Shown here in pieces: positions 1 through 19,424 of a stretch of DNA of 19,424 bases. Under the pieces are notes generated by a model. That model worked only from the letters and a program-made list of their open reading frames with translations. It did not search any database and was not told the origin of the DNA. Positions within the stretch are counted from its first letter, which is position 1. Every line of letters begins with the position of its first letter. The position numbers and the translations under genes are program-made. Origin of the DNA: Bryobacterales bacterium (GTDB lineage: Bacteria; Cyanobacteriota; Vampirovibrionia; Obscuribacterales; Obscuribacteraceae); contig CAJCHQ010000657.1 in assembly GCA_903970295.1 (NCBI GenBank), positions 1 to 19,424 on the forward strand. Reading direction: 5' to 3'.

Positions 1-2348
1 GTGGTCGTCTCAGGCGCATCTAAATGTGTGGAGTTTTCTCCGTTAGTGATTGTCACTCCCCTCAGGGTCTGGTCTGAACCGTTTCCCCGGTCATCCGGCC
101 TGGCAATGGGCTGGGGAGTGGCGTTCAAAGCGTTGTACAGATAGTTCGGACTAAAAGGACTTAGCCCGTCGATCAGTGTCGATGCTGTGCTGATCGGAGT
201 GTCAATAGTGTTGGTACTGTTGCCTGCGGCGACAATACCTTGGACAGTACCAGTGGTGTTATCGAAGACGGGACCGCCAGACATACCATGCACGCCTGGA
301 CCTGACGTATCTAAGTAAGTCGTGTTGTCGCTCAAGCCAGGAGCAGAAAAGGAGGGCGTTACCAATCCTAAATAGGTAGAGTTAATTGCAGTGAACGTTT
401 GTCCGGGATAGCCAAATGAAGTTAAGCTATCGCCGGGACTAGCCTGCGAGTTAGGATCAATCTGGACAGAAGGATACGGCAGAGTAGGACCGGTGTTTGG
501 GACCGGAAGAATTGCTACGTCCGGATTGCCGGTGAGTTGAACTCCATTAGTACTAGTAACTGAGGAATTATTGGCGATTGGACTTGCGGTTTCTCGCGTT
601 CCGTCGTTAAAAATAATCGTCGATGGCCCTTCAGCATAAGTAGTTTCTCCGTTCTCGTTCGGCACTCCGTCTTGCCCCGTAGCAGCGGGAACATGCGCGG
701 CTGTGACAACGTATTGCTGGAAATTGCCATTTGCATCAGTGCCATCTACGATAAATCCAGTCCCTCCGGCTTTTGACTCAGATAGTTCGCCGTTCGGTCC
801 TACAGTCACTATCGGCGTAGTTATTTGTACCGTCGCTTGTGCTACTGCTGCTTGCGCGGGCGTTAACGTGGCCATTGTCGAAGCGCTGGAATCAGCAGCC
901 TCATCCGCAGTAGCGGCAGCCTGACCCGTAGAACTCATCGACTCTAATGCTGTCCCTGCCGTAGCCGGAACGCTTACTGCGCTGTCGGTGGTAGAGCCGG
1001 TGGTCGGCGTACTCTCTGGAGCTGCTCCAGAAGTGGATGTCCCAGTAATCTGCGGAAGGACATTTAGAGATGAGGGAATTCCGGTAACAGTATCCATCAG
1101 ATCTTGCGCTGCTTGTGGTTGGGTGTATAGAGTGGTGGCATCTGGATCGTAAAGTGCATTTGCGTGTGAGTTGTCGTATGACCCGCCAGTGCTCATATCT
1201 AGAAATCCACCGATTGCAACCTGACCGCGGTCAGTGACCAGAGGGGTCGAGCCAGAGGTGCCCATCGCCATATCGCCGTCGCCAGTTATCATTGACCGTG
1301 TGTCGTTATCGCCGAAATGGACGTACTGAGGACCGTAGGACGCGACCGGTTCCACTCCCCGGTAAGTCGTAGACTGCACTGCTTGCTCAGTTTGACCAAA
1401 GGGATAACCGATCGAAGTCAAACTATCGCCGGGAGAATACTGAGGGTTCGAAGCGATGGGCAGAGACGGCTGATCTAAAACTGGACCGTCTAGCTGAAGA
1501 GCCGCTAGATCATTTGAATCCGTGCCCACGACATGTGCGCTGAAGGTGCCGGTAGAATTGGTGATCGTAATTGGTCCGGCCGTAGAATAGTTGTTCTGGC
1601 TATCAATACCGTTGCTGAGAACATTGTGGCCGTCTGTGAGGTAATACTGCTGGCCATCTGCACCCGTGGTATTGACTGCAGTGCCAACCTCTTCCATGTT
1701 TGAAACTTTTCCGTCTGGATCAATCGAAGAATATTTGGTCACTATTTGCCCAGTTGCCTGCGAAGCTGTTGCCAATTCGTCCGCCGTCAACTGCCCGGCT
1801 GCAGTAGGCACGCTGACACTGTCTGTTGGCAAATCTGCCGCTGCTGTCGGCGAAACTGCCGCTACTGCACCTGGTGCAGTGTCCGCCACTGATGCGTTAG
1901 TGGGCGCTGCGATGGCAGTATCTGCCACCGGCTCTCTATCGGTCGTAATCATTCCGCGGTCTGTTGTCAGTCCTCGGTCTAGCGCAGTCGATCCGCGGTC
2001 TACTATTGGCGTTGACGCTGTCGCACCACTCTCGGCCGCTACCGGTGCTGGCGCGACTGTTGCAGCTTCAGCTGCTGGCGCTGGCGTTGCAGCTTCAACC
2101 GCTGGCACCGCTGGCGCTGCCGTTGCGGCTTCAACCGCTGGCGTTGCCGTTGCAGGAGTGATCAGATCTGATTTAGGGAAACCATCCGGAAGGGCAGTAT
2201 CGGTTCTTGATAGAGCCGCTGCTCGATCAGCTCCTCCCGCCGGAGACCAGATGTCAGCCGCGATAGCGGCCTGCCCATAGACATCGTCTCTCGCTAATGA
2301 GGGCTGAAACCTGGAGCCATCTGAACCAACTGATTCGTTTGAAGGCAT
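1..2348 (-). CDS. Tandem trypsin-like serine protease, Ala-rich, 3'-truncated by window edge
   Basis: The frame is open from an ATG at 2348-2346 to the left edge (782 codons), so the C-terminus is missing. A good ribosome site (TGAGGATCACTT then ATG) fixes the start. Two paralogous chymotrypsin-fold domains are visible. Domain 1 (about residues 195-415) has His241 in TDGHNVL, Asp280 in NDLAALQL and Ser365 in GTSGSTPLV. Domain 2 (about 505-735) has His552 in VTAAHV, Asp610 in NPDVAILPV and Ser690 in GMSGGPVF. Both carry a SPGDSLTS[IF]GYP strand, which supports an origin by duplication. Residues about 64-105 are a PAVEAAT/APA-type low-complexity stretch followed by repeated DRG motifs. A second Ser/Thr/Ala linker joins the domains. 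The N-terminus (MPSNESVGSDGS) is polar, so no Sec signal peptide is present. Family membership (Trypsin_2/HtrA-like peptidase S1) comes from the motifs. The substrate is unknown, and domain 1 could be weakly active because its His motif is atypical. Confidence 0.85.
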   Translation of the reverse strand, partial: MPSNESVGSDGSRFQPSLARDDVYGQAAIAADIWSPAGGADRAAALSRTDTALPDGFPKSDLITPATATPAVEAATAAPAVPAVEAATPAPAAEAATVAPAPVAAESGATASTPIVDRGSTALDRGLTTDRGMITTDREPVADTAIAAPTNASVADTAPGAVAAVSPTAAADLPTDSVSVPTAAGQLTADELATASQATGQIVTKYSSIDPDGKVSNMEEVGTAVNTTGADGQQYYLTDGHNVLSNGIDSQNNYSTAGPITITNSTGTFSAHVVGTDSNDLAALQLDGPVLDQPSLPIASNPQYSPGDSLTSIGYPFGQTEQAVQSTTYRGVEPVASYGPQYVHFGDNDTRSMITGDGDMAMGTSGSTPLVTDRGQVAIGGFLDMSTGGSYDNSHANALYDPDATTLYTQPQAAQDLMDTVTGIPSSLNVLPQITGTSTSGAAPESTPTTGSTTDSAVSVPATAGTALESMSSTGQAAATADEAADSSASTMATLTPAQAAVAQATVQITTPIVTVGPNGELSESKAGGTGFIVDGTDANGNFQQYVVTAAHVPAATGQDGVPNENGETTYAEGPSTIIFNDGTRETASPIANNSSVTSTNGVQLTGNPDVAILPVPNTGPTLPYPSVQIDPNSQASPGDSLTSFGYPGQTFTAINSTYLGLVTPSFSAPGLSDNTTYLDTSGPGVHGMSGGPVFDNTTGTVQGIVAAGNSTNTIDTPISTASTLIDGLSPFSPNYLYNALNATPQPIARPDDRGNGSDQTLRGVTITNGENSTHLDAPETT
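2040..2160 (-). repeat. Imperfect Ala/Pro/Val-coding minisatellite in protease gene
   Basis: Units of the type GCTGGCG(C/T)TG(G/C)CGTTGC (plus strand) followed by (A/G)GCTTCAACC recur about four times. They encode the PAVEAAT-like segment near residues 64-105 on the minus strand. The repeats are imperfect but clearly related at DNA level, so unit number could vary between strains. Functionally this is probably a flexible linker. Confidence 0.6.
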
Positions 2349-2503
2349 AAGTGATCCTCATGAGAATGCGGCCGAACGCGCAAGTGTCACAGCAGCGATC
2401 GAGTGCTATCTGCAAACTTGTGATTGAGATGGTAAATCAGTCTCCAACAGGGTTTGTTCGCCCTGGGCTGCCCAAAATGGGCAAAGCAATCTTCTGTACT
2501 GGC

Positions 2504-2538
2504 TACTGTAGGGCGCGAAAATTACACGAGTGCGACAC
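2504..2538 (-). promoter_or_regulatory. Shared 35-bp upstream element, copy A (protease gene)
   Basis: On the minus strand this begins GTGTCGCAC and contains the core GTGTAATTTTCGC. It matches the element at 19088-19122 at 28 of 35 positions without gaps and in the same orientation relative to the downstream gene. The near edge is 155 nt upstream of the protease ATG. GTG-TCG-CAC is a short dyad. The sequence TACAGT 11 nt after the core resembles a weak -10 box, but no good -35 box sits 16-18 nt upstream. This suggests an activator site or a promoter for an alternative sigma factor. Function is inferred. Confidence 0.6.
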
Positions 2539-2628
2539 GGCGGCAAATCGATTCGCTCACCTAGAAATATGTCACGACCGTTGCAGAAGATCTGGAATAA
2601 CCCGAGCAGATTCTCCGGACTTTGATTA

Positions 2629-3207
2629 TCAGTGCACTAACAAAGCAATTTGATTAGCGTCGGCGTTTCGATTCCGCTTCCCGTTGCTTTCTAGATTTAG
2701 AAGTATTGTTTTGTTTGCCAATCCGCCGGCGAATCCGGTGAGCTCCCCGGAAGCTCCAATGACGCGATGACAGGGAGCAATAATTGAAATAGGATTTTTT
2801 CCGTTTGCAGCCCCGACCGCCCGCGACGCTTTTTCGTTGCCGAGCTGTTTGGCAATCTCGCCATAACTTCTGGTTTCACCAAATGGAATAGTTAGCAGGG
2901 CTTGCCATACACTTTTTTGGAAGTCGGTGCCAACAAATTCCAGCGGCAGCGAAAATCGCTCTCTGGTGCCAGCGAAATATTCGTTTAGTTGACGCTCTGT
3001 TTCGAGCAGGATGGCGTTATTTTGATCTTCCCGACCATGCGCAAGTCGAACGCGTGCGGGATTGTCGCTTTCCCAGAGTATGGCGGTCAATCCTCTTTCG
3101 CAGGCCACTAATTTCAGTTTTCCCACCGGCGTGTCGATAAATTTATACACGTGACTGTCCTCGCTTTTCCTTGCCGGATTTTGGACGATTTGATTTTCGG
3201 GGATCAT
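2629..3207 (-). CDS. ogt: Methylated-DNA--protein-cysteine (O6-methylguanine) methyltransferase
   Basis: The 192-residue product transfers the methyl group of O6-methylguanine (or O4-methylthymine) in DNA to its own cysteine, a suicide direct-reversal repair. The acceptor Cys146 lies in the diagnostic PCHRV motif. RAVGAANGKNPI at 129-140 contains the conserved helix arginine and asparagine of the family. GTDFQKSVWQALLTIPFG at 93-110 and SYGEIAKQLG at 114-123 are typical of the MGMT fold. The N-terminal YKFIDTPVGKLKLVA matches the ribonuclease-H-like domain. A strong ribosome site (GAGGAAAG) precedes the ATG at 3207. The gene lies 45 nt downstream of the Ada/AlkA fusion on the same strand, so the two probably form an alkylation-response operon. 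A basic tail (residues about 175-192) extends past the usual end of the family. Identification is firm; the choice of name ogt over mgmt is conventional. Confidence 0.93.
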   Translation of the reverse strand: MIPENQIVQNPARKSEDSHVYKFIDTPVGKLKLVACERGLTAILWESDNPARVRLAHGREDQNNAILLETERQLNEYFAGTRERFSLPLEFVGTDFQKSVWQALLTIPFGETRSYGEIAKQLGNEKASRAVGAANGKNPISIIAPCHRVIGASGELTGFAGGLANKTILLNLESNGKRNRNADANQIALLVH

Positions 3208-3252
3208 TTTCTTTCCTCAAACAAAGAACTTGCGGTAGCTGATTCGAACGAA

Positions 3253-4674
3253 TTACAAAGACTTCCACATATGCATTGCCGCATATGCTCGCCAGGGACG
3301 ATATTTGTCAGTTTCCTGTAACATCGCTTTCTTGCTGTTCAACCCGAGTACTTTCCTGATACCAAGATCGCCATGCGGAAATGCGTCGGGCCATGCCAGG
3401 CAGCGCATGGCAATGTATTCTGCGGTCCACTCGCCTATACCGGTAAGCGAAGTCAGTTGCGCCACTGTGCTTTCATAGTCAACTCCCGGTTGCAGATTCA
3501 CTTTACCATCGACGAAACTTTTAGCGAGTGCAACTATTGTTTGGGCGCGTGCCGGCAGTATTCCTAATTCAGATATTTCGCTAGGAACGGCTGCGGCTAC
3601 AGTACCGGCTTGCGGCGTGATTAAGTTCAACTGTGGAAAAGGCGTAATGATCGGCGTCCCAAACTTTTCCGCCAAACGACCAGCGAGACTCGAGGCTGCT
3701 TTGACACTAACCTGTTGGCCGAGTATGGCTCTCACTGACACTTCAAACGGATCGCAGGCTCCTGGAACTCTCAGTCCGGGGTGCTTTTTGGCAAGACTTC
3801 CTAATTGATTTTCGATCAGCTCTGGTTTTGCCTCCAGATCGAAGAGTCTTTTCAGACGCGTCAATATCTGTAAAAACTTGGGCGCCAGTGAAGAAGACAG
3901 TGTCACCTGAAGCGCCGATTGATTTTCACTCATCGTGATGCTCAACCAACCGGTTACTTTTTCGATGCAGATTGTACGCTTGTAGGTATTCGCGTGGACG
4001 AACTCAACGCCAGGGCACGCTCGAGCGCGAAGAAAATCGAGCATCGAATTCCAATCATAAGGTGGTCGGAAAGAAAGTTGGCAATCAAATGTGTCTGACG
4101 ATGAAGGTTTTGACAGTATCGATTTGCGCAGCTGACTGGGATTTAGTCTGTACCTTTCGACGAAAAGAGCGTTAAAACGACGTACGCTCGCGAAACCGCT
4201 TGCCAGCGCTATTTGAGTAATGGGCAGTGCCGTGTCGGTGAGCAATCTTTTAGCCAGGAGCAGTCGCTGAGTTTGAACGAACTGCACGGGAGTGACCCCA
4301 ATTTCCGATTCGAAAACGCGTCTCAAATGGCGACTGGTAACGCCAAGCTCCGCTGCTAATTCTTCGAGTGAATTGCTCGAGACGGCGCCGTCTTCGATGC
4401 GATTTATAGCTTTCGTGACCAGTCGACTTCTGGCATCGACGGATGAATTGCCGGGAGCCAGTTCGGGTCTGCACCTCAAGCAAGGTCTGTAGCCGTCGCG
4501 TTCGCACGATGAGGCGTTTTCATAAAAGGTACAGTTTTTCCGCTGAGGCGGCTTGACTGTGCAAATCGGTCGGCAATAAATGCGAGTCGACCGCACCGCA
4601 ACGAAGAAGAGCCCATCGAAGCGGCGGTCTCGAGTAATTAATGCCTGATAGCAAACTTCTGGAGTAAGATTCAT
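3253..4674 (-). CDS. alkA: Ada regulator / 3-methyladenine DNA glycosylase II fusion (Ada-AlkA)
   Basis: The 473-residue multidomain alkylation-repair protein starts at an ATG (4674) with AGGA about 8 nt upstream. Residues 1-75 form the Ada zinc domain, with Cys34, Cys38, Cys65 and Cys68 in YCRPICTVKP and RPCLRC. By analogy with E. coli Ada, Cys34 would take methyl groups from phosphotriesters and act as the damage sensor. Residues about 82-182 are an AraC-type double helix-turn-helix (SLEELAAELGVTSRHLRRVF, then ITQIALASGF). Residues about 195-300 match the AlkA N-terminal domain (FRPPYDWNSMLDFLRARA). Residues about 305-473 form the HhH-GPD glycosylase (RAILGQQVS, LTGIGEWTAEYIA), with catalytic Asp436 in AFPHGDLGIRK. 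The O6-methylguanine transferase activity that E. coli Ada has in the same chain is here supplied by the next gene. The protein probably activates its own operon after methylation, and excises alkylated purines. Confidence 0.93.
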   Translation of the reverse strand: MNLTPEVCYQALITRDRRFDGLFFVAVRSTRIYCRPICTVKPPQRKNCTFYENASSCERDGYRPCLRCRPELAPGNSSVDARSRLVTKAINRIEDGAVSSNSLEELAAELGVTSRHLRRVFESEIGVTPVQFVQTQRLLLAKRLLTDTALPITQIALASGFASVRRFNALFVERYRLNPSQLRKSILSKPSSSDTFDCQLSFRPPYDWNSMLDFLRARACPGVEFVHANTYKRTICIEKVTGWLSITMSENQSALQVTLSSSLAPKFLQILTRLKRLFDLEAKPELIENQLGSLAKKHPGLRVPGACDPFEVSVRAILGQQVSVKAASSLAGRLAEKFGTPIITPFPQLNLITPQAGTVAAAVPSEISELGILPARAQTIVALAKSFVDGKVNLQPGVDYESTVAQLTSLTGIGEWTAEYIAMRCLAWPDAFPHGDLGIRKVLGLNSKKAMLQETDKYRPWRAYAAMHMWKSL

Positions 4675-4787
4675 GGTCTTATCCTAACGCAGCTTCCGTG
4701 AAAAGACTCGCCGTTTTCGGACTTGGGTATTTCGGGTTCTGCTACGATACCGACACATAATTGCATAATGAAAGCGGAGTTCGGAAA
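4675..4787. promoter_or_regulatory. Divergent intergenic region between repair operon and ADP-ribosylhydrolase
   Basis: These 113 bp separate the oppositely transcribed Ada/AlkA and ADP-ribosylglycohydrolase genes and must hold the 5' control signals of both unless longer transcripts enter. An AT-rich stretch near 4755-4770 (CACATAATTGCATAATG) could hold a plus-strand -10 box. I could not define convincing -35 boxes or an Ada box, so only the divergent layout is supported. Confidence 0.5.
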
Positions 4788-5726
4788 ATGCTTGACGAGT
4801 CTTCCAGAGTGAGGGGAGCAATATATGGTCTACTAATCGGCGATGCGCTGGGGGTGCCGTATGAGTTCCATGCACCAGACGCGATTCCACCTTTTGATCA
4901 GATCGAATTTGAGCCGCCGGAAGATTTTCGCCGCACGCACTCTACGGTAAAGCCGGGCACTTGGTCTGATGACGGGGCTCAAGCTCTCTGTTTGACAGCG
5001 TCACTTTTGGAGTGTGGCAAATTAGATCCAGACGACTTGGGGCAACGCTTTCTAAAATGGTACGACACGGGTTACATGGCCGTAGACAACATTGTTTTTG
5101 ATGCAGGAATTACAACGATCGAAGCAATTGATAGATTGCGTGCAGGCACTAACTCACTTGCTGCTGGTCCCAGTGATGAGCGGAGCAACGGTAATGGCGC
5201 CTTGATGCGAGTTTTGCCGCTGGCGATCTGGCATCGTGGTTCTGATAGTGATTTGATTGCCGATGCGTTCGTGCAATCAAGTGTTACGCACGGACATCTG
5301 CGTTCGAAAATTTGCTGCGCGTTACTTTGTCTGTACGCCCGAAACGTTTTTCGGGCGCAGCCCGAGCCGTGGAAGCGAGCATACGATGTGATGTACGAGG
5401 CCTTCGCATCAGAAGATGATGTAGTTGATGAATTGAAATCGCAGATCCATCCGGAAGATGAACCTGAAGGCAAAGGTAGCGGATATGTTGTCGACTCGCT
5501 CCGTTCAGCGTTGATGGTGCTGAACAATGACTCGTATGAGAAGATCGTACGTGCTGCCGTGCAACTGGGCGATGATACCGATACTACCGCCTGCATCGCA
5601 GGCGGTATCGCAGGATTGCGCTATGGCGAAGAAGCGATCCCCGAACGATGGCGTAATGGTCTGAGGGGGCGAGACATCGTCGAACCGCTATTGCAGCGTT
5701 TGGTTGAGCATGTATGCGCGTCGTGA
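4788..5726 (+). CDS. ADP-ribosylglycohydrolase (DraG/ARH family)
   Basis: The 312-residue enzyme is predicted to hydrolyse ADP-ribose from a modified protein, nucleic acid or small molecule, using a di-magnesium centre. An upstream in-frame TTG (4761) exists, but the ATG at 4788 has GGAG nine bases before it and starts the family-typical helix (RVRGAIYGLLIGDALGVPYE, residues 7-26). Metal-binding motifs are TWSDDGAQ (Ser60, Asp61, Asp62) and the C-terminal GDDTDTTACIAGGIAG (Asp262-Thr266). NGNGALMRVLPLAI at 134-147 is also typical. The second residue after the SDD motif is Gly where many relatives have Thr, a mild deviation. The protein is probably cytoplasmic. It is transcribed away from the alkylation-repair pair, and its 3' end overlaps the next gene by 13 nt, implying co-transcription. 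The family is clear; the substrate cannot be told from sequence. Confidence 0.9.
   Translation: MLDESSRVRGAIYGLLIGDALGVPYEFHAPDAIPPFDQIEFEPPEDFRRTHSTVKPGTWSDDGAQALCLTASLLECGKLDPDDLGQRFLKWYDTGYMAVDNIVFDAGITTIEAIDRLRAGTNSLAAGPSDERSNGNGALMRVLPLAIWHRGSDSDLIADAFVQSSVTHGHLRSKICCALLCLYARNVFRAQPEPWKRAYDVMYEAFASEDDVVDELKSQIHPEDEPEGKGSGYVVDSLRSALMVLNNDSYEKIVRAAVQLGDDTDTTACIAGGIAGLRYGEEAIPERWRNGLRGRDIVEPLLQRLVEHVCAS
5336..5357. repeat. Perfect 9-bp-stem hairpin inside ADP-ribosylglycohydrolase gene
   Basis: CGCCCGAAA at 5336-5344 and TTTCGGGCG at 5349-5357 are exact reverse complements around a 4-nt loop. It lies fully inside coding sequence (ARNVFRA), so it is not a terminator at a gene end. Confidence 0.6.
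5585..5607. repeat. Perfect 10-bp-stem hairpin inside ADP-ribosylglycohydrolase gene
   Basis: TACCGCCTGC at 5585-5594 and GCAGGCGGTA at 5598-5607 are exact reverse complements around a 3-nt ATC loop. The hairpin lies within the codons of the conserved TTACIAGGI metal-site motif, about 100 nt before the overlapping start of the next gene. Confidence 0.6.
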
Positions 5727-6949: not shown

Positions 6950-7556
6950 TTATTGCAGAGTTAATGGCTTCCGTCCAGCGCTCTAATGTATGCTCGAAAA
7001 GAAAATCTTGGGGCCAATCTTCTGCGTTGCCCCGGCCACGATCAAAAAGCGTAACACCTGGTTTTTCCACCACCATTAGACGTGCTCTGTTTTTGAGAGG
7101 ATTTAGATATACATCGTAGTTGGTACCGCACCAAAACCCCATTTCATTTTTTTGGAACACGGAGGTTGCTCCCGAGCCCTGAATGTAGAGAACTAGCGGT
7201 AAGTCTCCATCGTCCGATGCATGTTTTGCAACGTAGAAGCTAATAGTGCGGTCTAACGCATCCCTTGTATGGTACTGCTGAAAAGAAAGGGATTTTTTCC
7301 AGTCAATTATAACCCGTGTTGCTTTCGGGATTTGTTTCTCTGATGCTTTTGTCATAGCTTCTCGGGATTGCAAATGAGAAAAAACGCGCGGGTGATGAGT
7401 TGAATGGATAGCGTCGAAAAATCTGCTTGCATCGCGAAAGTTGTCCATTCTGCGACTAAAATTTATTCGGCGAAATTCAAATGCAACTGGTGGCACGTCC
7501 AAAATAACTGACCCGTTTTGCCAATCAGTGTCGCCGCATAAACCGATGTCATACAT
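6888..7556 (-). pseudogene. Alpha/beta hydrolase, N-terminal part (first frame of a frameshifted gene)
   Basis: The first part of the split hydrolase is 222 codons if started at 7556, or 156 codons if started at the internal ATG at 7355 (MTKASEKQIPKATRV), where recognisable sequence begins. It contains DLPLVLYIQGSGATSVFQ, which carries the oxyanion-hole strand with a QGSG motif, and ARLMVVEKPGVTLFDRG, typical of serine hydrolases and peptidases. It ends in KQEKITGHWSF followed by TGA. The TGA (6888-6890) overlaps the serine codon of the GHSEG nucleophile motif read in the other frame, so this half lacks the catalytic residues. The first 67 residues before Met68 have no family likeness that I see, and no ribosome site precedes 7556, so the upstream start is doubtful. 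The substrate is unknown. Confidence 0.75.
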
Positions 7557-16950: not shown

Positions 16951-18954
16951 TCAGCCGTCATAGTCGCTAGTAATATCGCCTGACAGAGCGGTTTCTTGGT
17001 TTTTAAGTTGATTGTACTCCTGGGCGGTGAGGGCGCCGCCGTTACTAGCCGCATCAGCCTGTTCCTGCTGACGAATAGAGTTGTCTTCGCTCATCAGTTG
17101 ATCATAATGACCACTCAAGCCACTCTTGTCTTGATTGATCTGGTTACTCAAATTGGAATAGAGTCCCAGCACTTCGGAGCGTAAGGGACGAGCGGCTCGA
17201 AATTGAGCGTCGCCAAAGCCGTAGTTGTCGCTGCTAATTTGGCTCGACAGGCTGTTTTCTTCGCTTTTGAGTTGACTATATTCTTGGTCAGTGATATGGC
17301 CTCCGTCGTTAATGGCATCAGTCTGCTCCTGCTGACGGATGGAGTTGTCCTGGCTCAGCAGTTTACTGTAGTTACCGTTCAGATCACCCATGTCTTGATT
17401 AATCTGATCGGACAAACTCGCATTGAGTCCTAGCACATTGGAGCGGAAGGAATGAGCTGCTTGAAACTGGGCGTCGCCGGCGCCGTAATTGTCGCTGCTT
17501 ATCTGGCTAGACAGGCTGCTTTCTTGGCTGTTTAGTTGATTGTACTCTTGACTGGTGATTTGACCGCCATTGGCAGCTGCATCAGCCAGATCCTGTTGAC
17601 GGATGGAATTGTCTTCGCTCGTCAGTTGACTGTCATTACCATTGAGATCGCCGGCATCCTCGGTGAGCTGATTATTCAAACCAGTAGCGCGTTTTAGCAC
17701 TGCGGCGCTTCCTGGATTGTCATTTTGAGACCCCGAGCCCGGTGTGTAAATCTGCATGTTGGTCACGTCCATTGCTTCACCATCGCCGGTGCCCAAAATC
17801 CAATTCATCGGTGTGGTCAGGGCCGGGTCGCCCGCTTTTAGTTGAAACTTTGCAGTCTGTTGCCCATCGACGTAGGTCGTGACGGTATCATTATCCTTAT
17901 CAACGAGGGCCGCGATTTCAACTCCTTGAGTTGCGGCATTGTTAAATAGGCTTGGGTCGATCGCCGATGACTCACTCGTAGAGCCAGCATGGTCGCCCTT
18001 AATCCAATCATGAAGAGTGCTTCCAGCGGGCTTGTTCCCATTGGCTTTTCCGAAATATTCCATGGTATCAATTTCTTGATTGAGATTTGAACTTGCATTC
18101 CACCCGCTGAGCCCCCAAACAGCAGGCCAGCTAGTCATCTTTCCTCCATCAAAAGTCGCTTTCCCGACCGTGTTGGGATTGAACTTCACATCGGCGACAA
18201 ACAGTTGCGTACCGGTAACCGATGTCTTCGGTGCCAGGTCACCACCATAGCCACTTGGATCGTTATCAATTATAAATCCGCCTTTGCCGTCAGGTTTTCC
18301 GTATTCCGACATCGGCTTGGCTGTTGTTCCAGAGCCACTATATCCGGTGACGTTGTCAACGACAGGTCCGGAAAGGGTGGCTTTCAATCCCATACTGCTC
18401 ACTAAATTCTGCAATGTAGGAGACAAATTTATGTCGCTGCCACTGGCTGTTGATGCTGATGCAGCCGTTGATGCTGATGCAACTTTTGGCTCGGATGCAA
18501 CTTTCGGTGCTGAGGCAGCTTTTGGTGCTGGCGCGGCTGATTTTGCTGTGGCTTCTGTCGGTGTCAGTGCGACCGCTTTAGTTACTGCTGTGTGCTCCGT
18601 GCTGACCGACTTTTGCGAATCCTGAGTGGAAGGAACTCCAGCAGCCTTAGTGGCATCAGCTTCTACATCGTTGGCTGAGCCATTTGTTCCTGTAGGCACA
18701 CCAGTTTTATCGTCTGTGGGAAGAAGTGGTGAGTTATCGCTGCTTTTGGTGAGCCCGGTCAGACTTAGGTCAGGCAAGCTGGAATCACTGTCATTTGCGG
18801 TTGGCTGGAAAGTTTGCAAATAGTCTTTGCTGTTAGCCGCGGAATAAGTATTTGCTGCGACACTGCGAATAGTTTGATCGTTGGCTGCGGGCTGTTTTTG
18901 TACTTCCGCAGTTTTTGCAACTTCGTTGGCAGTCGCAACCGCTTGAGTGCTCAT
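16951..18954 (-). CDS. GH16-like glycoside hydrolase with C-terminal 88-residue repeats
   Basis: The 667-residue protein starts at the ATG at 18954, fixed by a strong ribosome site (CTGGAGGTTCT directly before it). A GTG 30 bases upstream is less likely. Residues 1-180 are low complexity, Ala/Thr/Ser/Lys-rich (PKAASAPKVASEPKVAS), with no Sec signal peptide. Residues about 190-405 form a concanavalin-like domain carrying the GH16 signature QEIDTMEYFG, with Glu294 as expected nucleophile, Asp296, and Glu299 as expected acid/base. Nearby SWPAVWGLSGW and HDWIKGDH are also GH16-like. GH16 enzymes cleave beta-1,3/1,4 glucans and galactans; the substrate here is unknown. Residues about 425-667 are nearly three copies of an 88-residue helical repeat with the motif DNSIRQQ-x8-NGG-x-[IL]T-x-QEY-x-QL. 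The gene shares a 35-bp upstream element with the protease at the left end. Confidence 0.85.
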   Translation of the reverse strand: MSTQAVATANEVAKTAEVQKQPAANDQTIRSVAANTYSAANSKDYLQTFQPTANDSDSSLPDLSLTGLTKSSDNSPLLPTDDKTGVPTGTNGSANDVEADATKAAGVPSTQDSQKSVSTEHTAVTKAVALTPTEATAKSAAPAPKAASAPKVASEPKVASASTAASASTASGSDINLSPTLQNLVSSMGLKATLSGPVVDNVTGYSGSGTTAKPMSEYGKPDGKGGFIIDNDPSGYGGDLAPKTSVTGTQLFVADVKFNPNTVGKATFDGGKMTSWPAVWGLSGWNASSNLNQEIDTMEYFGKANGNKPAGSTLHDWIKGDHAGSTSESSAIDPSLFNNAATQGVEIAALVDKDNDTVTTYVDGQQTAKFQLKAGDPALTTPMNWILGTGDGEAMDVTNMQIYTPGSGSQNDNPGSAAVLKRATGLNNQLTEDAGDLNGNDSQLTSEDNSIRQQDLADAAANGGQITSQEYNQLNSQESSLSSQISSDNYGAGDAQFQAAHSFRSNVLGLNASLSDQINQDMGDLNGNYSKLLSQDNSIRQQEQTDAINDGGHITDQEYSQLKSEENSLSSQISSDNYGFGDAQFRAARPLRSEVLGLYSNLSNQINQDKSGLSGHYDQLMSEDNSIRQQEQADAASNGGALTAQEYNQLKNQETALSGDITSDYDG
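16954..17682 (-). repeat. 264-bp tandem repeats encoding 88-residue helical units
   Basis: DNSIRQQ recurs at residues 448, 536 and 624, an exact 88-codon (264-bp) period. QEYNQL/QEYSQL and SSQISSDNYG recur in register. The first two units are complete. The third stops after its helical half, at the end of the gene. DNA-level similarity is obvious, for example GAGTTGTC near 17076 and 17340. The repeats look like paired amphipathic helices, possibly for adhesion or protein binding. Confidence 0.85.
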
Positions 18955-19087
18955 AGAACCTCCAGTATTTAGACGCCACCCCACTGAGGTGCACGGCTAT
19001 ACCCGTAATGACTATTAGTAAGGAACTATTGGACAAGCGGTGAAACAGTTAAATAGTAAAAACGAAACTCCGCGAGCCCAGTGACCG

Positions 19088-19122
19088 TAATATAGGATGC
19101 GAAAATTACACATGTGTGACAC
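19088..19122 (-). promoter_or_regulatory. Shared 35-bp upstream element, copy B (GH16-like gene)
   Basis: On the minus strand it begins with the perfect dyad GTGT-C-ACAC and contains the core GTGTAATTTTCGC. It is then followed by TATATT, a good -10 candidate. It is 133 nt upstream of the GH16 ATG and matches 28 of 35 positions of the element at 2504-2538. A further related octamer, GTGTCAGA (minus strand, 19126-19133), precedes it, as if a second half-site were present. Confidence 0.6.
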
Positions 19123-19165
19123 AACTCTGACACAAAATTGTGCTAAACCCGGTGCATTAGCTGCG

Positions 19166-19398: not shown

Positions 19399-19424
19399 GT
19401 GACGAACAAATCAAATCTTCCAGC
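19399..19424 (+). CDS. Start of a gene cut by the right window edge
   Basis: GTG at 19399 has a strong ribosome site (CCGGAGGG) at suitable spacing and opens a frame (V/M-T-N-K-S-N-L-P) to the edge. Only eight codons are visible, so no function can be given. It is transcribed away from the GH16-like gene. Confidence 0.5.

What the first reader, a model, noticed from the sequence alone, without database searches (positions are those of the whole stretch)
2504..2538. A 35-bp element shared by two genes 16 kb apart
Positions 2504-2538 and 19088-19122 agree at 28 of 35 positions without gaps, with a 13-bp identical core (minus strand GTGTAATTTTCGC). Each lies upstream of a minus-strand gene in the same orientation, 155 and 133 nt before the start codon. 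The two downstream proteins are unrelated in fold (tandem protease and GH16-like), but both lack a Sec signal and have Ala/Ser-rich N-termini. This looks like a regulon operator or alternative-sigma promoter. The dyad GTGT-C-ACAC (degenerate in copy A) and the following TATATT/TACAGT fit an activator site next to a -10 box.
Basis: seen in the sequence. Interest (0 to 1): 0.75.

Follow-up and report, generated by a model that had tools for sequence, protein, structure and literature searches.

The report
Shared response-regulator switch for hydrolase genes
Two genes for probable exported enzymes in an uncultured, non-photosynthetic relative of cyanobacteria share a promoter element that looks like the docking site of a two-component response regulator, and relatives carry the same kind of site beside that regulator and beside other enzymes of the same type.

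Summary
In detail: 2504-2538 and 19088-19122 match at 28/35, and among twelve upstream regions 0 of 150 shuffle sets reached that score. The window is a contig of Obscuribacterales type. The literal element is not widespread: 22 hits against 23 for a control pattern in 53 genomes. Read more finely, copy B is three 7-bp boxes (TGTGTCA, TGTGTCA, TGTGTAA) in 11-bp phase, 11 bp before TATATT; copy A is a degenerate two-box version before TACAGT. In relatives such arrays sit beside one clade of OmpR-family response-regulator genes and upstream of Sec-less, exported-type proteins (SGNH-GH5, lytic transglycosylase, LysM, a 475/477-aa family); in the seven that I assigned, TA...T follows the last box by 9-10 bp. 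The one 6-mer motif shared by those seven leaders, TTAC(C/T)A, is also in both window leaders. Best explanation: operators of an OmpR-type response regulator driving a small hydrolase regulon. Against: boxes face the other way in the window; copy A is not significant by boxes alone; arrays were found with a pattern modelled on B; the window's own regulator is unseen.

The parts
2504..2538 (-).
   Evidence: 28/35 to copy B
2533..2539 (-). Copy A box 1, CGTGTCG
   Evidence: 11-bp phase with box 2; PWM score of the two boxes 11.8, not significant alone
2522..2528 (-). Copy A box 2, CGTGTAA
   Evidence: as box 1
2505..2510 (-). Copy A -10-like hexamer TACAGT, 11 bp after the last box
   Evidence: inferred function
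2430..2435 (-). Leader motif TTACCA, 87 nt before the protease start
3..2348 (-). Protease gene with two Trypsin_2 stretches, Sec-less Ala-rich N-terminus (runs off the window)
19088..19122 (-).
   Evidence: 28/35 to copy A
19128..19134 (-).
19117..19123 (-). Copy B box 2, TGTGTCA
19106..19112 (-). Copy B box 3, TGTGTAA
   Evidence: three-box PWM score 30.7; best of 200 shuffled windows 19.4
19089..19094 (-). Copy B -10-like hexamer TATATT, 11 bp after the last box
   Evidence: inferred function
19016..19021 (-). Leader motif TTACTA, 67 nt before the GH16-like start (a second TTACTA at 19054-19059)
16951..18954 (-). GH16-like protein with a C-terminal tandem 88-aa repeat, Sec-less N-terminus
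   Evidence: fold only weakly supported

Best explanation
The two copies are operators for an OmpR/PhoB-family response regulator. The regulator, phosphorylated by its histidine kinase, would bind head to tail to 7-bp half-sites spaced by 4 bp (11 bp, one helical turn) lying where a -35 would be, and recruit RNA polymerase to the -10 that begins 11 bp further on. It would switch on a small regulon of exported hydrolases made without a Sec signal, here a trypsin-like tandem protease and a GH16-like glycanase. The transcripts would have leaders of roughly 130-150 nt carrying TTAC(C/T)A, a second shared element of unknown role. Shown by sequence: the shared element, the phased boxes in B, recurrence of such arrays beside OmpR-type regulator genes and Sec-less genes in relatives, and the leader motif. 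Inferred: binding, activation rather than repression, the start sites, and that a regulator of this clade exists in the window's genome.
For: (1) Copy similarity among upstream regions: 0 of 150 shuffle sets reached it. (2) Pattern TGTGTCA-N4-TGTGTMA-N4-TGTGTMA (up to 3 mismatches): 32 hits against 17 for the reversed pattern in 53 genomes, 28 distinct sites. Four of the 28 lie at loci of one regulator clade: G037:C15 and G042:C176 (array, kinase, regulator), G037:C31 (regulator, then array), and G043:C122, where the contig ends after the array and the kinase lies on another contig, so the link is inferred from the orthologous divergent gene. Fetching loci of the same clade gave two more arrays, G036:C159 and G038:C2, both in the order kinase - regulator - array - Sec-less gene. 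Four regulators scanned (one outside this clade) have Response_reg and Trans_reg_C domains. (3) Genes downstream of the seven arrays that I assigned: SGNH-GH5 (three genomes), 475/477-aa family (two), LysM protein, SLT transglycosylase; 7 of 7 have TA...T 9-10 bp after the last box and no hydrophobic N-terminal stretch. (4) A box matrix from seven relatives' arrays scores B 30.7; no site reached 18 at 2,012,410 scored positions (both strands, about 1.0 Mb) of G045/G021, none reached 17 in 400 kb of G038, and the best of 200 shuffled windows was 19.4. (5) Enumeration of 6-mers (at most one twofold position) gave one motif in 6 or more of the seven relatives' leaders, TTAC(C/T)A, in 7 of 7 and in both window leaders; background 7.2% of 373 leaders; 0 of 60 random sets of seven had such a motif. 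(6) G036 has the same situation as the window: two unlinked genes sharing a promoter block, 47 of 57 identical.
Against: Boxes read TGTGTCA towards the gene in the window but TGACACA towards the gene in all seven assigned promoters of relatives, with the -10 at 11 instead of 9-10 bp. Copy A has two imperfect boxes and is not significant by the matrix alone (11.8; shuffled-window maximum averages 12.8). The arrays were found with a pattern modelled on B and five of the seven matrix arrays came from it, so the matrix score of B is partly circular. 22 of the 28 pattern sites, among them 10 of the 16 that score 23 or more, are not assigned to this system, and 18 of 28 overlap an ORF of 60 aa or more. 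No array was found at the loci of the more distant regulator paralogs fetched nor at most of 30 kinase loci, several of which were cut by contig ends and so not tested. The three GH5 leaders, and the 475/477 leaders, are related to each other, so the leader motif rests on four independent groups; I saw the motif by eye, window B included, before the enumeration.
Confidence: 0.6

Rival explanations
1. Operator of a different kind of regulator (CRP/FNR-like dyad, LysR or other), the 11-bp phase being incidental.
For: Copy B contains GTGTCACAC and ACACATGTGT dyads; box orientation differs from the relatives; hits inside the window's own genome could not be sought.
Against: Period 11 is the best self-match of both copies; copy A does not keep the dyad; arrays of 3-5 boxes in the same phase recur at OmpR-type regulator loci.
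Confidence: 0.2
2. Promoter recognised by an alternative sigma factor.
For: The shared block runs into the -10-like region and includes AATTTTCGC and CCTA outside the boxes.
Against: The scan for sigma-70-type promoters found none at A and only an unrelated plus-strand site near B; in relatives the tandem boxes recur while the -10 hexamers vary (TAGACT, TATGCT, TAGGCT, TAAGAT, TACTAT, TATGGT). ECF or other sigma consensus sequences were not searched.
Confidence: 0.08
3. A promoter copied once between the two loci by recombination, with no living regulatory role for the shared block.
For: Only two copies are known and the literal element is absent elsewhere.
Against: Similarity is confined to the box-to--10 block and falls to background on both sides; a similar pair exists in G036 with different flanks.
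Confidence: 0.07
4. Chance similarity of two AT-rich upstream regions.
For: 1 of 20 whole-window shuffles reached the same score, and another real pair in the window has it.
Against: 0 of 150 shuffle sets and 0 of 2000 pair shuffles for upstream regions; the leader motif is shared too.
Confidence: 0.05

Closest known systems
WalR/VicR box of Firmicutes, TGTWAH-N5-TGTWAH (proposed for S. mutans VicR as TGTWAHA-N4-TGTWAHA); passages of PMC4168254 seen
   Same: OmpR-family regulator; direct-repeat half-sites beginning TGT in 11-bp phase; footprints over the -35/-10 region at some targets. The WalRK system controls cell-envelope remodelling genes (start of the abstract of PMC9210968 in a search listing), compare LysM and SLT proteins here.
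   Different: Fourth base is G or T here, not A/T (W), fifth mostly T and sixth C; three or four boxes rather than two; targets here include extracellular-type glycanases and a protease; the organism is of another phylum.
PhoB pho box, CTGTCATA-W-A-W-CTGTCACA-WWN as quoted in PMC4168254
   Same: TGTCA-type half-sites in 11-bp phase.
   Different: No phosphate genes among the assigned targets; 29 pstS upstream regions of the order showed no 5-mer repeated at 11 bp in two or more of them, though some may lie inside operons.
HLR1/RpaB and OmpR sites (recalled, no call)
   Same: OmpR-family, direct repeats; TGAAACA boxes of the GH5 promoters resemble OmpR half-sites.
   Different: Spacing of about 10 bp in those sites as recalled; not tested here.

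Membership tests
OmpR/PhoB-family response-regulator operator | two or more half-sites as direct repeats in about 11-bp phase | tested here: met
   copy B: three boxes, matrix score 30.7. Copy A: two imperfect boxes, inconclusive alone
OmpR/PhoB-family response-regulator operator | site next to or over the promoter -35 region | tested here: inconclusive
   -10-like hexamers 11 bp after the last box in both copies; no mapped start sites
OmpR/PhoB-family response-regulator operator | a cognate OmpR-type regulator is encoded with such sites | tested here: met
   in relatives: arrays at G037:C15, G042, G037:C31, G036:C159, G038:C2, and by inference G043. In the window's own genome it cannot be seen
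OmpR/PhoB-family response-regulator operator | the regulator binds the site | not testable with these tools
   needs EMSA or footprinting
WalR/VicR box | TGTWAH-N5-TGTWAH | tested here: not met
   boxes read TGTGTC/TGTGTA: G at the W position (consensus)
Pho regulon (PhoB box) | shared with pstS promoters of the order | tested here: inconclusive
   no 11-bp repeated 5-mer in two or more of 29 pstS upstream regions; operon position not excluded
CRP/FNR-like dyad | TGTGA-N6-TCACA or close in both copies | tested here: not met
   read from the sequence: absent in A; B has one half TGTGA on the plus strand without a matching second half
Alternative sigma promoter | fixed -35 and -10 of a known class | not tested
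   only sigma-70-type scan run, no site at A, unrelated site near B

The most novel reading that the evidence does not exclude
The element marks a dedicated effector regulon of Obscuribacterales: one OmpR-type two-component system switches on a set of hydrolases (GH16-like, SGNH-GH5, trypsin-like, lytic transglycosylase, LysM) that leave the cell without Sec, several of them through a shared N-terminal module (roughly a hydrophobic-A-x-x-x-aromatic-S stretch followed by LPxLSL), with a TTAC(C/T)A leader element as a second common control. That would point to an undescribed export route and predation- or polymer-degrading programme in this lineage.
Probability: 0.25. Interest if true: 0.75.

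Novelty: new member of a known kind. Interest (0 to 1): 0.5.

Why it matters
Regulation in Obscuribacterales and their uncultured relatives seems little studied: 'Obscuribacter' with 'response regulator' found no paper in the library, and 33 papers mention Obscuribacterales (15 listings seen). A box that can be scanned for, tied to a specific regulator clade and to Sec-less hydrolases, makes both the regulon and the question of how these enzymes leave the cell testable. It also turns a two-copy curiosity into a site with a named candidate regulator.

Tried and rejected
Literal element: 22 hits v 23 control hits in 53 genomes, 22 of 22 inside ORFs of 60 aa or more; 13-bp core 9 v 9, contexts without further similarity; longer pattern 0 of 386 genomes of the phylum; 0 in viral contigs; no plasmid match. 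Position weight matrix of A and B over about 1 Mb of G045/G021: nothing above control; that run masked A and B behind spurious ORFs, so it was no test of the window. Orthologous upstream regions: none available. Pho hypothesis: no repeated box in pstS upstreams. General TGTGTMA enrichment upstream of genes in G045/G021: none, it was rarer than in shuffles (2 against a mean of 13.2). RNA element: no Rfam match; folding of the copies not alike (A z +1.2, B z -2.4). Terminator: none at A; one on the plus strand upstream of B. Other proteins with the same C-terminal repeat: no boxes seen by eye in their upstream regions. N-terminal module as a marker of the regulon: rejected as specific, since new hits in G019 and G034 have no array, and most cross-family N-terminal pairs are not significant. 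Structure: full GH16-like protein pLDDT 44, domain pLDDT 50.7, too low for a firm fold.

Full report
Observation. The two segments agree at 28 of 35 positions with a 13-bp identical core and lie 155 and 133 nt before the start codons, as stated. Taken over the whole window the match is only suggestive (1 of 20 shuffles equal, and another real pair of the same score). Among twelve upstream regions it is clear (0 of 150 shuffle sets, best 18 against 21; next real pair 14).

Anatomy. On the minus strand copy B reads TGTGTCA-gagt-TGTGTCA-caca-TGTGTAA, then 11 bp, then TATATT; copy A reads CGTGTCG-cact-CGTGTAA, 11 bp, TACAGT. Period 11 has the highest self-match count in both. The shared block also includes the spacer AATTTTCGC and CCTA before the -10. 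No Rfam family matches the window. No sigma-70 promoter was found at A, and only an unrelated plus-strand site near B.

Origin. The window equals a 19,424-base contig in the protein database, and no whole genome is held for it. The C-terminal repeat of the GH16-like protein led to an Obscuribacterales genome and to a genome titled Proteobacteria that the tool places in the same order. The DUF6493 protein has its best matches in the order in G021 and G045 (46-61% identity over segments).

Genes. The protease has two Trypsin_2 stretches. The other protein matches no Pfam, NCBIfam or PDB sequence. A low-confidence domain model (pLDDT 50.7) has a GH16-type endo-beta-1,3-glucanase as first Foldseek match, mixed with galectins, and the stretch QEIDTMEYFG is largely conserved in two homologs; that this is the GH16 catalytic motif is recalled. 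Neither protein has a hydrophobic stretch in the first 60 residues.

The literal element elsewhere. It is not enriched in 53 genomes of the order (22 v 23; core 9 v 9), all 22 hits overlap ORFs, and a longer version is absent from 386 genomes of the phylum. GH16-like orthologs are absent from the 53 genomes and the protease has only weak partial matches in two.

The box array elsewhere. A three-box pattern gave 32 hits against 17 for its control, 28 distinct sites. Eighteen of the 28 overlap an ORF of 60 aa or more and most are unexplained. Six could be assigned. At G037:C15, G042:C176 and G043:C122 an array of four boxes lies between a divergent Sec-less SGNH-GH5 gene and, in the first two, a kinase-regulator operon; in G043 the contig ends there and the kinase is found on another contig. 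At G037:C31 a five-box array follows a regulator of the same clade. At G036:C132 and G038:C5 arrays precede a LysM protein and an SLT transglycosylase, with no regulator of this clade noted in the fetched stretch. Searching with the regulator gave the same clade in G038:C2 (83% identity) and G036:C159 (71%), and both loci have the order kinase, regulator, array, Sec-less 475/477-aa gene. The remaining RR loci fetched gave weak box matches inside ORFs and one unassigned intergenic match.

Architecture of those promoters. In gene direction all seven assigned promoters have TGACACA-type boxes in 11-bp phase, then 9-10 bp, then TA...T. The window copies have the opposite box orientation and 11 bp. 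This is the main structural objection. Two unlinked G036 promoters share a 57-bp block with 47 identities, a parallel to the window's pair.

Scores. A matrix from seven arrays gives copy B 30.7. Leaving out each related group changes B only to 29.2-31.1, while the left-out arrays score 21.1-26.3 at their better offset. Background: none at 18 or more at 2,012,410 positions of G045/G021, none at 17 or more in 400 kb of G038, shuffled windows at most 19.4. Because the arrays were first found by a pattern modelled on B, this is a consistency test more than an independent one; the independent parts are the position of the arrays at regulator loci, the -10 spacing, and the leader motif. Copy A's two boxes score 11.8 and are not significant; A belongs through its similarity to B and its leader.

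Leader motif. Enumerating 6-mers with at most one twofold-degenerate position in the last 120 nt before the seven relatives' starts gave a single motif in six or more of them, TTAC(C/T)A, in 7 of 7. It is in both window leaders; background 7.2% of 373 leaders; 0 of 60 random sets gave a comparable motif. The seven fall into four groups of unrelated genes. I had noticed the motif by eye before this count.

N-terminal module. The GH16-like protein, its homolog P0001 and the SGNH-GH5 proteins share a pattern A-x-x-[QTI]-[WY]-[SNH] ... LP[DGES] near the N-terminus: among 1050 ORF products it occurs in the window's GH16-like protein and the three GH5 orthologs only, with none in reversed or internal controls (the pattern was taken from these proteins). 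Pairwise significance is weak. A profile search of 53 genomes found, beyond its own rows, G019 (E 2.3e-4) and G034 (E 0.0025) with the module at the N-terminus but no array. So the module is wider than the regulon.

Mechanism. The most likely reading is activation of hydrolase genes by an OmpR-type regulator bound to direct repeats over the -35 region. By architecture the nearest described sites are the WalR/VicR and PhoB boxes (passages of PMC4168254). It works like these but is not a WalR box by sequence, and the Pho link found no support.

Noticed in passing
L181:7921-8036 (G037:C31): A five-box array follows the regulator gene, but the 475/477-aa gene present at this place in G036 and G038 is absent; a fasciclin-like gene also found at the G038 locus comes next. 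It looks like a promoter left behind after loss of its gene.
   Followed up: partly
L186 (G023:C47), arrays at 7062 and 7640 of the reverse strand: Two near-identical box arrays (TGTGACA-TTTGTCA-TGTGAAA type) 578 bp apart upstream of small genes, in a contig stretch that also holds an OmpR-type regulator and a kinase.
   Followed up: no
53 genomes of the order: Very large families of one histidine-kinase and OmpR-regulator type: up to 24 kinase matches listed per genome (the number scored was capped at 24) and up to 42 regulator matches at the thresholds used.
   Followed up: no
L279, L280 (G019, G034): Sec-less proteins with the same kind of N-terminal stretch ending in LPxLEL but without the array: possible export signal of wider use.
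   Followed up: partly
window 19399-19424: A plus-strand gene seems to start with GTG at 19399 behind a GGAGG-like site and runs off the window; copy B lies between it and the GH16-like gene and could serve both.
   Followed up: no
window 2568-2585 (+): A further weak two-box match (TATGTCA-N4-CGTTGCA, score 14.6) close to copy A on the other strand, within the range of shuffled-window maxima.
   Followed up: no
window 16953-17744: Three 264-bp tandem repeats encode an 88-aa unit that in relatives occurs in small proteins, several with signal-like hydrophobic N-termini.
   Followed up: partly
window 2629-4674: A methylguanine-DNA methyltransferase gene lies beside an Ada-AlkA type gene on the same strand, an alkylation-repair pair; copy A lies in the gap after it.
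   Followed up: no
window 4761-5726: ADP-ribosylglycohydrolase whose best named matches come from several different phyla, so probably spread by horizontal transfer and useless as a lineage marker.
   Followed up: no
L002: A genome record titled 'Proteobacteria bacterium' (Centralia_MAG_505) is placed in the same order as an Obscuribacterales genome by the tool.
   Followed up: no
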